Shown one piece after another: positions 42,368 through 47,949 of a DNA stretch of 64,000 nucleotides. Each line of letters begins with the position of its first letter. Positions within the stretch are counted from its first letter, which is position 1. The stretch lies in contig NC_037092.1 in the NCBI RefSeq assembly GCF_002994745.2, forward strand, positions 80,360,824 through 80,424,823. Reading direction: 5' to 3'. The position numbers were made by a program, and so were the translations under genes. The stretch comes from Rosa chinensis. Taxonomy: Eukaryota; Streptophyta; Magnoliopsida; Rosales; Rosaceae. The notes under the pieces were generated by a model, which saw only the letters and a program-made list of their open reading frames with translations, did no database searches and had not been told where the DNA came from.

Positions 42368-42379
42368 CACTACACCAAA

Positions 42380-42925
42380 AATCGCATCAAACAACGGCAG
42401 AAAACCGATGTGGGATTTGGAGTCCTACCGTTGTAGAGTGAGCCCTTGTCTGATGAAAAATCAGACAACGGTGGAACACAGTTGTGTGATAAACACACAG
42501 ACAACAGGTATGTGTTATAATTGTTGTGTGATAGCTCGGCAGATGCGAAGCGCAGCTGCGCAGCAGTTGAGGCTCTGTCTTCAGACAACAGTGCCAGTTT
42601 TAAGCTGTTGTATGTTTAGCGTTTCAGACAACATTTTTTTTATTTTGTCTGTTGTCTGATTGATCTTCAAACTTCAGTTCTTGGACTATATCTGTTGTGT
42701 GATGAACTTTAGGACAACAGAGTTCAATTGGTTCTGTTGTGTGATTAAATTTTAAGACAACAAAGTTCAATTAATTTTGTTGTCTGAGTATAAATCAGAA
42801 GACACTGATTCGTTAAAAACCGATGTGTGATATGATTGATTACAATGTGTTTTTGTCCCCTTTTTGGCCATTCAGACAACAGGCAGTTATCATTATATCT
42901 AATCTGTTGTGTGATCATTTGAACA
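42380..42925. repeat. CACTA left subterminal repeat array
   Basis: About a dozen copies of TTGT(G/C)TGAT or its complement-like CAGACAACA in both orientations (for example 42471, 42524, 42572, 42690, 42738, 42903). Likely transposase-binding sites in cis. Confidence 0.85.
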
Positions 42926-43109
42926 TTCCATTCCTGAATTAGATTGTGCATTCATTTGGTCCATTTACCAAATGAACAGTACTCTATCAAATAGAAACAT
43001 TCCAAACCATCAAATGATTCATATAACCAATACTTTAAACTTCAAAAGCAAAAGGGGTGCATTTCCCAATCATTGAAACCAACATTTTACACAAGAAAAG
43101 CATTCTAGT

Positions 43110-43262
43110 GCATGCCCTAAACACAAGCAAATGAATGATGTGAAAAGTCAAATAAATAGCTCGGTATTGATGTGCCTTGACCAGCTCTTTAGAGATCTGT
43201 GATCCACGATTGGGTTGAGATGATGAAGAGGACTTTGTCATGGTCGAAGTATTCTTGGAAGC
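43110..43262 (-). other. Possible further captured exon in the CACTA, unidentified
   Basis: An open minus-strand stretch, ADAAASKNTSTMTKSSSSSQ then NRGSQISKELVKAHQYRAIY, follows an acceptor-like TTTTACGCAG. Ser-rich with a Lys-rich helix-like end; no family recognised. Confidence 0.3.
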
Positions 43263-43419
43263 AGCAGCATCAGCCTGCGTAAAATCAAACTAAGAAATAA
43301 GGAGAAAAAAGCAGAATGCAACACACAGGCAATGAGGTAAGAATAACATTGAACGATAGCATGTACCAGTCATCATATATTGATTACCCTGAATATCCGG
43401 TGAATGCCTCAAAGTAGCA

Positions 43420-44770
43420 TGTACCAGACCAAATGCTATATTTTTGTAGAAGTAGCAAATCTGAAAAGCAAAATATTTCCATCAACAAGTGGATGAAGTT
43501 CAAAAAAGAAGACTAAGTAGACACATGCTCTTGTGTTCCTAAGCGTGTGCAAGTATACAGCATACAACATACAAGCACAAGCAAGTGGCATTTTAACAAA
43601 TCTGTGACAATAAAGTACTAGATGAGCATACTGATATTACCATCTGAGCAATCCTTTTATAGGACCAATGTCCATGGACAACCAAAAGTCTCTCCAAAAA
43701 CTGAAACTGGGCAATAGCAAAGTCACTGACCATCACAGCCTGCAAGCAATTACGAACTGTCATGAGATTCACTATAAAATGAGAAACTGGTTCCTGCTTC
43801 CACCACGGATACCTTGTTTCCCATTTAGACATGTAATACAAACATTATCACATGTAAGCTATTATATGTTATATAAATACAGACCCAGACGACCCTCCAC
43901 CCACACACACACAGACAGACACACTATCTGTTCATAGTCAGGTAACAATTCCAGTGAAGCACCACATGTCATTATAGTATCTCTGTTACTAGGAGTACTA
44001 ATGTGCCTGTAACTCCTAATATGGCTCCATTACATGCACTATTAACTGAACCTAGCCAATGAAAGACATAAAAAGTATAAAAAACAATCAACTTTATGCA
44101 ACTACTTGTTTACCTTTTCAAATATTATTAGGTTTTGGTCCACATTTATCAGAGTAAATTATTTTTTTGGCTCTTGTCCTCCATTATTGCAATCTTTTTA
44201 AATAAATAAAAACAATAAGAAATGATGTTACATGTGTATAAATTTTAAAAAGATTTAAAAAGAAGGGGGAAATGTAGCTTTATTATTATTCACGGTAGTG
44301 CTTTCTACTTAAATGGTTAGAGACAAACCCTATGTTGATTGCAGTTTCCATGTTATCCCCTGTCAACACCCAGATCTTGAGATCAGGTTGTGCAAGATTG
44401 TATATGCATTGGGGCATCTAAGAGAATAAAAAAAGGTACTAAGTTGCCGTAAATCAAAACTGCAGTTCCTTATTTACTACTGTAATAAGAAGCTTATCTT
44501 ACCCTTTTTTGCAATTTGTCCTCCACAGCTGTAGCACCAACCATGATCAAGTCTTTTTCCATCTTCTCTGCTACTCGTTCGAGCATCACCTCCCTATCAG
44601 CCCCGATAGATGATTTTGCTTTTGAAATTCATTGTTCTAAGCAGAATACTCAGACTCCTCAAGCTTTTTATAAGCAAGCGTCAACGTACGCAACCCAGCT
44701 TCTCCATATTCATTCAAATGCTTGGTACTAGCGTCCACATAAATTCTTCCATTCTTTGACAGTCAAACGA
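43420..44770 (-). pseudogene. Captured fragment of a P4-type (ALA) phospholipid-flippase ATPase
   Basis: Four minus-strand exons keep family order. About 44770-44503: LSKNGRIYVDASTKHLNEYG, LRTLTLAYKKLEESEY and DLIMVGATAVEDKLQK. 44417-44329: IYNLAQPDLKIWVLTGDNME then TAINIG, the hinge around the conserved TGDKME motif. 43739-43641: AVMVSDFAIAQFQFLERLLV then HGHWSYKRI. About 43461-43420: ICYFYKNIAFG, the start of a membrane segment. Exon borders keep GT/AG signals. A TAG (in SA*NNEF, normally Trp) and a large gap between exons 2 and 3 (the VMTGDG region is absent) rule out an active pump. Plant ALA proteins move phospholipids across the bilayer. The piece sits inside the CACTA. Confidence 0.88.
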
Positions 44771-45526: not shown

Positions 45527-45745
45527 CTATCTTAAAACCATTATATTCAATGGTTGAATCATCTGGTCTTGCATTTTCTTTGCTATAGAAGTCCATGGTA
45601 TACGACATGCCCGAATATCCACCCTGTTTAACACCAATTCCCAGGCATAGATCCTCATTATGTTTGGATCTCATCTTATTGAAGTGCTTTGATGCATTCT
45701 CTGTGAGTGAAATTGCAGGTGCAATGTCATCGGATGTCGAGGCAG
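45527..45745 (-). pseudogene. Captured exon of a plastid IscA/SufA-type iron-sulfur scaffold gene
   Basis: A 219-bp minus-strand exon (73 codons) bounded by an acceptor (tttgtgtttcag) and a donor (GTCAGC). It codes ISLTENASKHFNKMRSKHNE, LCLGIGVKQGG, GMSYTMDFYSKENARPDDS and IEYNGFKI. This is the A-type Fe-S carrier domain as in Arabidopsis CpIscA. The first of three cluster-binding cysteines, normally in GGCSGMSY, is Tyr here (GGYSGMSY), and the exon for the C-terminal CGCG-type cysteines is absent. The transit-peptide exon was not found. Non-functional fragment carried by the CACTA. Confidence 0.87.
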
Positions 45746-46869
45746 CTGAAACACAAATGGGGATTAGCATTGAGCAGGCCATAATCAAATAAATGATATG
45801 AAAACGAAATGAAATTCACATTTGCTTTGCATAATGTGTTTCAAACTATTATAGACAATTTAGATCCAGCTAAATATTATCCGAAATTCTTAATTCGAAC
45901 ATCGTAATAAACAATTCACATCCAAACCAAATTCATGCAGCATTTATATGACAAATTTATGCTTCTAATTGAAAAGGCAAAGGCCTTTTGTCGTGGAGAC
46001 CTAACAAATTTCAATTACAGCGAACAATTGGAAATCAAAACCAAATTATAGCAAACTAATTATAGAAACAAAAAAGAGCGCAGCTCACTGGAAGTTGAAT
46101 TGAATGGGTATTCCATGCATGGCTGATAATAGTGGATGAAAATCAGAAAGAAATTGAATTTCGAGCTGAAGAGGAAACGAAGAAGAGAGGAGAGGCAGTG
46201 CGTAATTACCATATGCAGAGATCATCATAACCAGAACCAATTCTTGGCAGTAGGCTCGGAACCAGAACCTGTTTCCCTTCCCTTTCAGGGCATGCAACCA
46301 AAGCCAATAACTCAGAGCTGAATCAAAACAATCGCAGCCATTACCAAGCACAATCCTGCAAATCCCAAATAGCCCAAAAAATGAAATCAGAAAAGCATGC
46401 CAACAAAACATTAAAGAAGTCATAAATTGTCAAATACCAAAAGCCAAAAAACCAAATTTCTTTCCACCAGAGAATGAGAAGACCAACAAAAAAAATCTTC
46501 ATGTACGATCAAGCAAACAATCCTGGCCCCCCCCCCTCTCTTTTCTGCACAGATCGAGCAAACAATTGAAAACAAACAAACACCTCTCTATCTCTCTCTC
46601 AGCAAAATAACGAAGACCAAATCTAGAGAAGGAGAAAAGGGAATTACCTTCGCGATGATGTTGCTTAGAATCAAAACTTCGAGCTTCTTCCTTTTTGGTT
46701 TGCAGGTGAGGGGAGATGAGAGAGGAAATGGGTTGGCTTCGGAGAGATAGACATGAACAAGAAGAGGGATCGAAATCTTAATCGATGAGTGCAGTCGAAC
46801 CCTAATCGAGATGTGTTTGATAACAGATGGTGTTTTGATGAGAGATTGATGGTTTTTGATGATGTTGAG

Positions 46870-47042
46870 AATAATCTCATTCATGTCGAGGTACAGATTT
46901 TCATACTCGCCGTTAGGATTTGGCTTACTGGTGTGGACGGAATCGAAACGTCGTCGATTACAACCGGTTCTTCTTCCACCACATCGACTACGACGAGTGG
47001 ATACTTCTCCGCTAGCCATCTGTAGAAAGCTGGAACTCCCAT
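46870..47042 (-). pseudogene. Captured first exon of a 5'-3' exoribonuclease (XRN) gene
   Basis: From ATG 47042 the minus strand reads MGVPAFYRWLAEKYPL, VVVDVVEEEPVVIDDVSIP, then after a 1-bp loss near 46935 the next frame reads TSKPNPNGEYENLYLDMNEI. This is the N-terminal catalytic block of XRN-family exonucleases; the Asp in YLDMN is in the metal-binding active site. The usual Gly after N is Glu, and homology ends about there, at the expected end of exon 1. It is the 5'-most captured piece in the element's minus-strand direction, so its ATG could start any chimeric transcript. Confidence 0.87.
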
Positions 47043-47339
47043 TGCCCGTCACGCTAAGCTCCGCGCCCAGCAGATCTCTCTGTTTCTCTATCGGAAAAGG
47101 CAGAACGAAATCGGAGGCCGAATCAAAACCCTAAGCTGAGACTGAAACTCTGAATTGAATAGGAGAAGGAACAAACCGCGCGCCGAGCGTGATTTTGTTT
47201 GGCAACTTAGCAAAATGGTTTAGTGCTGCTCGATGAGGAGAGGAAACGGCTGTTTTGATAAAGTCTTGACGGGGAGATAGCATATGCAATAAACCTAGCT
47301 AGCTAATTAAGTTGTCAAAGGCGGGCTTTTAATTTTTGC

Positions 47340-47940
47340 TTTATGAATCAGACAACATAAAGACGAAATTGTTGTCTGATTGTGAACAACTTAAACCTCA
47401 GCTAAGGTTTCAAAGAGGGAAAAGTTCCCGCTATAATATCGACCAAAGTAATATGCTAGGCAATGCTCATTTACACAACGGAAACAACTCATTTGGTTGT
47501 GTGATTATCAATCTGGTGCTATATTTCAATCAAAACTTGGAGGTTTTTGGGCAGCTCGAGTGCCATTTTGGGCCAAATAAAGGCACATCCAAATATTTCC
47601 CACTTCATCACACAACAAAAAGTAAAAAACCGTTGTATCATGTTTTGCATGCTACTCTCATACAACAGATATAACTATATTGTTGTACGATGTAGTACCA
47701 ATTTAGAGCCAAATTTGAGTCAATCTGGGAGGGAAATCTGCCGCTATTTTTTTTTATGATTCAGACAACAGATTATTCTTGTAACCGTTGTGCAATGACC
47801 TTCTAAACAAAAACTTCAGAATTTTAACCACCTTATACAACGTAAGTTTACTAAACATGTTGTGTGATTCACTTTTCTTCATCACACAACACATTTTTTT
47901 TTTCGTTGTGCAAAAAGTGTTGTGTGTTAACGTTTTTGGT
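47340..47940. repeat. CACTA right subterminal repeat array
   Basis: Repeated CAGACAAC, TTGTGTGAT, CACACAAC and TTGTGCAA words in both orientations, mirroring the left array. Confidence 0.85.
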
Positions 47941-47949
47941 GTAGTGTTC

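What the first reader, a model, noticed from the sequence alone, without database searches (positions are those of the whole stretch)
42368..47946. Pack-CACTA carrying exons of three unrelated host genes in one orientation
The ends, the TTC TSD and the subterminal arrays define a CACTA element, yet its interior holds the first exon of an XRN exonuclease, a middle exon of plastid IscA, and four exons of a P4-ATPase, all on the minus strand, some with intact splice borders. The XRN ATG is first in line, so a spliced chimeric transcript is structurally possible. Capture by CACTA elements is known, but three donors in a 5.6-kb element with retained splice signals makes this a good test of exon shuffling.
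Basis: partly seen in the sequence, partly recalled or inferred. Interest (0 to 1): 0.75.

Follow-up and report, generated by a model that had tools for sequence, protein, structure and literature searches.

The report
Jumping gene assembled from gene scraps
A plant jumping gene in this rose-like genome carries decayed pieces of several unrelated host genes, gathered at different times and copied around as one unit; the type is already known, but its relatives preserve the before-and-after states of two gene captures.

Summary
Window 42368-47946 is a complete non-autonomous CACTA element: exact 14-bp terminal repeats, TTC target duplication, subterminal arrays. Its minus strand carries pieces of XRN, plastid IscA and an ALA4-type P4-ATPase. 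The whole cargo occurs at 9 or more places in the same 515-Mb genome, 8 of 9 with matching 3-bp target duplications, so it moves as a unit. Donor genes lie elsewhere: ALA C2:61.56M, XRN C6:62.68M, IscA C2:29.50M.

The interpretation needs correcting. (1) IscA, with parts of exons 1 and 2, came second-hand inside a Helitron. (2) XRN is a 352-bp insert into the transposon's own leader. It stops inside XRN exon 1, and the frame from its ATG ends after 46-95 codons in the nine copies, before the leader's splice-donor-like site. (3) A derived clade of four copies gained a fourth gene piece, plastid Fe-superoxide dismutase (1495 bp replacing 388 bp), after spreading had begun. (4) Exon-derived and other cargo diverge equally, so no coding constraint is seen.

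New member of a known kind (compare soybean Tgm-Express1, five gene fragments). Its value is an ordered ladder of captures that looks more like in-place gap filling than fusion of neighbouring elements. Transcription could not be tested.

The parts
42365..42367 (.). target site duplication TTC, left
47947..47949 (.). target site duplication TTC, right
42368..43117 (+). left end of the CACTA family: TIR plus subterminal repeats; 40 scored places in the genome, counting this one and the other cargo copies
43118..43324 (.). unassigned stretch with an exon-like open frame on the minus strand; shared by the cargo copies and by sibling elements L030 and L031
   Evidence: no Pfam match; donor search did not complete
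43325..44966 (-). fragment of an ALA4-type P4-ATPase gene (donor C2:61558762-61561202); exon pieces about 44503-44780, 44329-44417, 43641-43739, 43325-43460; 766 bp of the donor missing at 44281/44282
44967..46613 (-). Helitron piece containing the IscA fragment; minus strand reads TTTTTGCCTAG then T at the ALA junction, as at Helitron 3' ends; 5' end missing
45425..46230 (-). IscA (plastid) fragment nested in the Helitron: part of exon 1 (about 46090-46230) with a stop and small indels, and exon 2 (45527-45745) with a conserved Cys changed to Tyr
45019..45406 (.). Helitron stretch that four derived copies (B clade) have lost in exchange for 1495 bp of a plastid Fe-SOD gene
46614..46868 (-). 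the CACTA family's own internal leader, with a splice-donor-like GAAG/GTAATT at about 46648; abuts the right end in other family members
46869..47220 (-). XRN fragment (donor C6:62684495-62684847, 95%): 5' leader and 58 codons of exon 1; in this copy one base is lost and the ORF from ATG 47042 ends at 46884
47221..47946 (-). right end of the CACTA family: subterminal repeats plus TIR

Best explanation
A non-autonomous CACTA (En/Spm-type) transposon that became a Pack-CACTA in steps. Shown: the form common to all nine copies holds an ALA4-type gene fragment, a Helitron piece already carrying plastid IscA exons, and an XRN 5' fragment placed inside the transposon's own leader. That combination spread to at least 9 places; one later lineage replaced 388 bp with 1495 bp of a plastid Fe-SOD gene and now sits at four of them. 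Inferred: the Helitron jumped into the ALA intron, while XRN and SOD were patched in by template switching during repair of breaks inside the element. A transposase made by an autonomous relative (not found here) recognises the ends and moves everything between them. The cargo is passive and decaying. Any minus-strand transcript would be a non-coding or truncated mosaic, at most a short XRN-headed peptide or a source of small RNAs against the donor genes.
For: At least 9 copies with the cargo; matching 3-bp TSDs in 8 of 9. Donors at separate loci, with no other element similarity in the fetched flanks. Empty XRN site in 2 of 2 family members read (L051, L052); by my reading of the rows, 29 of the 31 listed right ends that are not cargo copies have the leader within about 32 bases inward. 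Tree: the SOD-bearing clade c6-c9 has 100% support and is nested among copies without SOD (the nodes placing it inside have 100, 97, 60 and 80), and the related Helitron L032 is continuous across the replaced stretch. Differences from donor: SOD 27/1301, XRN 17/352, ALA 115/1627, IscA gene 60/424. IscA in the Helitron at C5:46.0M differs by 7-10 of 149, against 18-21 of 149 for the IscA gene over the same stretch, in 9 of 9 copies. CTAG followed by T at 9 of 9 inspected Helitron 3' ends, with a perfect 5-bp stem before it in 6 of 9. Among copies, exon-derived 0.0224 and other cargo 0.0230 mean pairwise difference.
Against: Copy 2 lacks a matching TSD, has a mutated first base and an insertion near its left end. 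The order of ALA and XRN capture is not resolved by divergence (p = 0.16). The Helitron-end reading of the ALA junction rests on about 11 bases; a plain break with a 2-base filler is possible. The seven extra Helitron ends were picked because they match L032 there, and two of them share a flank. No autonomous partner was found: the family search did not complete, and in the two family members read for it no transposase was recognised. Divergence as a clock is weakened by different constraint on exons and introns. The XRN frame is unbroken through all 58 codons in 7 of 9 copies, so that piece is less decayed than this window copy suggests.
Confidence: 0.87

Rival explanations
1. Neighbour-fusion model: two CACTA copies landed on either side of a gene, and an aberrant excision with complementary terminal deletions produced one hybrid element enclosing the gene piece (the published Pack-CACTA model).
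For: Proposed for Pack-CACTA in Arabidopsis (passages read in PMC13317346, and PMC8903248; the original paper is not held). It could still explain the ALA fragment, whose capture has no empty-site comparison here.
Against: For XRN the two breakpoints in the family sequence coincide within a few bases, for SOD within 388 bp of 5579. Two independent breakpoints would fall this close with probability about 0.004 and 0.07; the second is weak. SOD carries a second copy of a 166-bp piece of its donor at one border, which fits template jumping. No part of the element was found in the 1.5-kb flanks of the XRN, SOD or ALA donor matches.
Confidence: 0.15
2. A functional chimeric gene: the minus-strand transcript is spliced into a selected XRN-IscA-ALA fusion.
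For: Splice dinucleotides intact at 8 sites in 9 of 9 copies; the XRN frame is unbroken through 58 codons in 7 of 9 copies; in Tgm-Express1 captured exons are spliced into chimeric mRNAs (abstract of PMC1947982).
Against: The XRN frame ends after 46-95 codons in all nine copies, short of the leader's donor-like site about 131 codons down. IscA exon 1 has a stop and indels, and exon 2 carries stops or a frameshift in 4 of 9 copies (c2, c4, c5, c7). ALA exons carry stops and frameshifts in the window copy. Variable sites by codon position are 13, 15 and 16 among 505 sites.
Confidence: 0.04
3. The central stretch is not Helitron-derived; X is an unrelated host locus that was captured directly together with IscA.
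For: The 5' end of the Helitron is missing from the element, and only about 11 bases at the ALA junction look like a Helitron 3' end.
Against: The related loci end in CTAG followed by T, after a hairpin, at 9 of 9 inspected places (3 with an imperfect stem), and L032 starts at A/TC. The same X-IscA chimera exists apart from ALA and XRN at C5:46.0M.
Confidence: 0.1

Closest known systems
Tgm-Express1 (soybean CACTA, wp allele; PMC1947982, abstract read)
   Same: CACTA element of nearly the same size (5.7 kb) carrying several unrelated host gene fragments with introns and splice sites
   Different: Tgm-Express1 holds five fragments and is known to be transcribed and spliced as part of a host gene; here transcription is untested. 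This family shows 9 or more copies and a nested series of captures, one piece having come through a Helitron
Pack-CACTA of Arabidopsis, maize and rice (PMC8903248, passages and one section read; PMC13317346, passages read)
   Different: the published capture model is fusion of neighbouring insertions; here XRN and SOD look patched in at near-coincident breakpoints inside an existing element
Gap filling and FoSTeST Pack-TIRs in metazoans (PMC8277862, passages read)
   Same: small breakpoint distance within the TE, template switching, later amplification
   Different: described in animals; here a plant CACTA, with donors mostly on other chromosomes than the copies
Gene-capturing plant Helitrons (features recalled; gene capture in maize mentioned in PMC13317346)
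   Same: A/T insertion site, 3' hairpin plus CTAG, host gene fragment inside
   Different: here the Helitron piece is a passenger within a CACTA and moves by the CACTA's ends

Membership tests
Pack-CACTA (CACTA/En-Spm superfamily) | terminal inverted repeats starting CACTA | tested here: met
   14-bp exact TIRs
Pack-CACTA (CACTA/En-Spm superfamily) | 3-bp target site duplication | tested here: met
   TTC here; 8 of 9 cargo copies match
Pack-CACTA (CACTA/En-Spm superfamily) | subterminal repeat arrays in both orientations at both ends | tested here: met
   19 of the window's 21 motif matches lie in the two ends, both strands
Pack-CACTA (CACTA/En-Spm superfamily) | captured host gene DNA with donors elsewhere in the genome | tested here: met
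   ALA, XRN and IscA loci; SOD in the B copies
Pack-CACTA (CACTA/En-Spm superfamily) | lacks its own transposase | tested here: met
   longest stop-to-stop frame in 42368-47946 is 180 aa; the nine pieces of the element scanned with Pfam gave host families or none, not all frames were scanned
Pack-CACTA (CACTA/En-Spm superfamily) | mobilised by a CACTA transposase of an autonomous relative | not tested
   family search did not complete
Helitron (central piece X) | 3' hairpin followed by CTAG, next base T | tested here: met
   CTAG then T at 9 of 9 inspected relatives; perfect 5-bp stem in 6 of 9, imperfect in L029, L056, L060
Helitron (central piece X) | 5' end TC after A | tested here: inconclusive
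   L032 fits (A then TCTAAC); the similarity of L033 and L037 does not show the same TC; absent from the element itself
Expressed chimeric exon-shuffling element (Tgm-Express type) | spliced chimeric transcripts | not testable with these tools
Expressed chimeric exon-shuffling element (Tgm-Express type) | open reading frame from the first ATG into the next gene piece | tested here: not met
   XRN frame ends after 46-95 codons in the nine copies, before the leader's donor-like site; cryptic splice sites not excluded

The most novel reading that the evidence does not exclude
The family is a natural time series of gene capture by a CACTA transposon. It has an empty site for XRN, a before/after pair for Fe-SOD inside an already moving element, and a gene handed from one TE superfamily (Helitron) to another (CACTA). 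New gene pieces enter by repair patches inside the element rather than by fusion of neighbouring insertions.
Probability: 0.6. Interest if true: 0.62.

Novelty: new member of a known kind. Interest (0 to 1): 0.5.

Why it matters
More than one mechanism is in print for how TIR transposons pick up host genes (neighbour fusion, gap filling, FoSTeST). Here two captures have both the state before and the state after within one genome, with donors identified and the order fixed by a tree, so breakpoint positions, microhomology and donor linkage can be compared directly with the competing models. It also shows that a gene fragment in a Pack-CACTA need not have been captured by it, so counts of captured genes per element can include second-hand cargo.

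Tried and rejected
Rejected: a fused XRN-IscA-ALA protein from the XRN ATG; ends from two different elements; adjacency of the three donors elsewhere (not seen). Rejected on the way: an early guess that 46240-46880 was IscA promoter; it turned out to be Helitron plus the CACTA family's own leader. Read directly it is private to the window copy; copy 2 has its own break, and 7 of 9 copies keep the frame through 58 codons. One search also used slightly wrong exon borders and one wrong phase; the figures given here are those. The odds of the functional-gene rival were raised from 0.03 to 0.04 for this. A protein search with the 180-aa frame across the XRN junction found nothing. One orientation for all donors was considered as a signal: four pieces agreeing has chance 1/8, and IscA's direction comes with the Helitron, so no weight is given to it. 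The donor of 43118-43324 and the autonomous partner stay unresolved: five searches for the first and one for the second did not complete. Dating in years was not attempted; no rate was measured. Dropped rows: of the 45 matches, 17 make up the nine cargo copies; the rest are donor, Helitron, sibling and short left-end matches and were not counted as cargo copies. Pfam PF24975 at E 0.011 on an ATPase exon, below its cut-off, was taken as chance. L063 was fetched and not used.
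Full report
The element. Window 42368-47946 (5579 bp) begins and ends with the same 14 bases in inverted orientation, the only two exact matches in 64 kb, and is flanked by TTC on both sides. Nineteen of the window's 21 matches to the subterminal motif lie in its two ends. The left end (42368-43117) and right end (47221-47946) belong to a large family. Searches with the first 333 bases and with the last 1387 each scored 40 places, counting this element and its cargo copies, out of 570 and 966 first-look candidates; the left-end places other than this one are 92-97% identical, the right ends that are not cargo copies 91-95%. 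The genome (G000) has 515 Mb in 53 contigs, with the window at C5:80360824-80424823. The best named protein relatives are Rosaceae. That the size and seven large contigs fit Rosa chinensis is recalled, not shown.

Copies. A search with the interior (42920-47340) gave 45 matches, 17 of which assemble into nine loci carrying ALA, IscA and XRN pieces together: the window, C5:43.93M, C5:66.05M, C2:67.63M, C3:23.40M, C3:9.75M, C4:6.99M, C2:74.89M and C6:4.20M. Only the best 40 candidates were scored, so nine is a lower bound. Eight of nine have identical 3-bp flanks (TTC, TTT, GTA, ATA, TTT, ATG, CCA, TTT); copy 2 does not and has a mutated first base. Pairwise K2P distances are 0.002-0.047. So the ends belong together, and the cargo moves as one unit.

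Donors. The ALA stretch 43325-44966 matches C2:61558762-61561202 at 89-91%, with 766 bp of the donor absent at 44281/44282. XRN 46869-47220 matches C6:62684495-62684847 at 95%. IscA 45425-46178 matches C2:29501464-29502165 at 85% and 71%. None of these donor loci shows any other part of the element in the fetched flanks.

XRN. In family members L051 and L052 the internal leader abuts the right end directly; by my reading of the rows, 29 of the 31 listed right ends that are not cargo copies have the leader within about 32 bases inward. The XRN piece is therefore an insert into the transposon's leader with almost no loss. It stops inside XRN exon 1 (58 codons; the donor exon goes on to PEDR and then GT, my reading). 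Read directly in the nine loci, the frame from the XRN ATG has 53, 46, 72, 88, 95, 78, 78, 78 and 78 codons in copies 1-9. The one-base loss is private to the window copy, copy 2 has a different break, and the other seven keep the XRN frame to the junction. All nine end before the leader's donor-like site at about 46648, some 131 codons from the ATG; cryptic donors are not excluded.

IscA and the Helitron. The stretches on either side of IscA match a repeat X at C6:58.76M and elsewhere. Nine of nine inspected X relatives end in CTAG followed by T, after a GC-rich hairpin whose 5-bp stem is perfect in six; seven of these were chosen because they match L032 there, and two share a flank. L032 begins at A then TC. 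I take X to be a Helitron. The C5:46.0M locus, two pieces 55 kb apart that are probably one split copy, holds the same Helitron-IscA chimera, with the same small insertion and deletion in exon 1. Over 45449-45597 the nine copies differ from it by 7-10 of 149 bases, but from the IscA gene by 18-21 of 149. The IscA fragment therefore entered a Helitron first. At the ALA junction the minus strand of all nine copies reads like the Helitron 3' end, placed at an A/T of the ALA intron. I infer that the Helitron jumped into the ALA piece and later lost its 5' part and about 770 bp near its 3' end; this rests on about 11 bases.

The later capture. Four copies (C3:9.75M, C4:6.99M, C2:74.89M, C6:4.20M) lack window 45019-45406 and carry about 1495 bp instead. 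The piece holds exons of a plastid Fe-SOD: two of them, joined, give Sod_Fe_N 3e-07 and PAP4/FSD3 structures at 2.5e-18; a first exon is seen by eye only. The donor is C4:66854740-66856058, K2P 0.021-0.025; a paralogue on C1 is at 0.085-0.090. A 166-bp donor piece is repeated at one border. In a maximum-likelihood tree rooted with the donors these four form a clade with 100% support, nested among copies without SOD (supports of the enclosing nodes 100, 97, 60, 80), and the Helitron relative is continuous across the replaced stretch. The SOD piece was thus gained after spreading had begun.

Ages. Differences from the donor are SOD 27/1301, XRN 17/352, ALA 115/1627 and IscA gene 60/424. SOD differs from XRN (p = 0.0079) and from ALA (1e-10); XRN and ALA are not separable (p = 0.16). 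Constraint differs between these stretches, so only the SOD-last and IscA-first statements, each backed by independent structure, are firm.

Function. Exon-derived and other cargo differ equally among copies (0.0224 and 0.0230 mean pairwise), and variable sites by codon position are 13, 15 and 16 among 505 sites. Eight splice dinucleotides are intact in 9 of 9 copies; 8.2% of cargo sites vary, so 16 sites would stay invariant with probability about 0.25 without selection. IscA exon 2 has lost its conserved Cys in all nine copies and is broken in four. I conclude passive, decaying cargo. Transcription was not testable.

Mechanism. The published Pack-CACTA model is fusion of neighbouring insertions with complementary deletions (PMC13317346 passages, PMC8903248 passages and one section). 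Here breakpoints coincide within a few bases (XRN) or 388 bp (SOD) of 5579; independent breakpoints would do so with probability about 0.004 and 0.07. Gap filling with template switching (PMC8277862, passages) fits better, but is inferred.

Known kind. Soybean Tgm-Express1 (PMC1947982, abstract) is a 5.7-kb CACTA with five gene fragments and spliced chimeric transcripts, so multi-donor capture with retained splice signals is in print. Searches for a CACTA carrying cargo taken over from a Helitron listed no paper whose title or shown abstract start describes it; the papers were not all read, so this is weak.

Noticed in passing
window 49739-53820: Open frames on the minus strand look like a broken Copia-type polyprotein (integrase, reverse transcriptase and gag-like parts) just right of the element (frames listed; judged by eye only).
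   Followed up: no
window 11032-14307: 65-81% similar to a Copia-like retrotransposon that is inserted in the cargo copy at C3:23.40M.
   Followed up: no
window 18264-19406 and 2867-3343: Two frames resembling a K-channel-tetramerisation (BTB-like) domain, the first followed by pentapeptide-like repeats; perhaps related genes (frames; by eye, not searched).
   Followed up: no
L030 and L031 (C7:64.39M, C5:66.67M), L064: Sibling elements share 42368-43386 with the window copy but keep a different part of the ALA donor that is missing here; probably differently deleted descendants of an element with a longer ALA piece. No right end was found in the stretch read at C7:64.39M.
   Followed up: partly
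L052 (C7:56899189-56907395): A family member with TSD TGT and a 148-aa frame that looks by eye like a CACTA accessory-protein piece; no Pfam match.
   Followed up: partly
L033 (C5:46.07M): A second Helitron-type 3' end (hairpin, then CTAG and T) lies directly against the 5' start of the IscA-bearing Helitron.
   Followed up: no
window 23664-23850 and 25030-25108: Long dinucleotide runs that cross-match the short repeat in the SOD piece.
   Followed up: no
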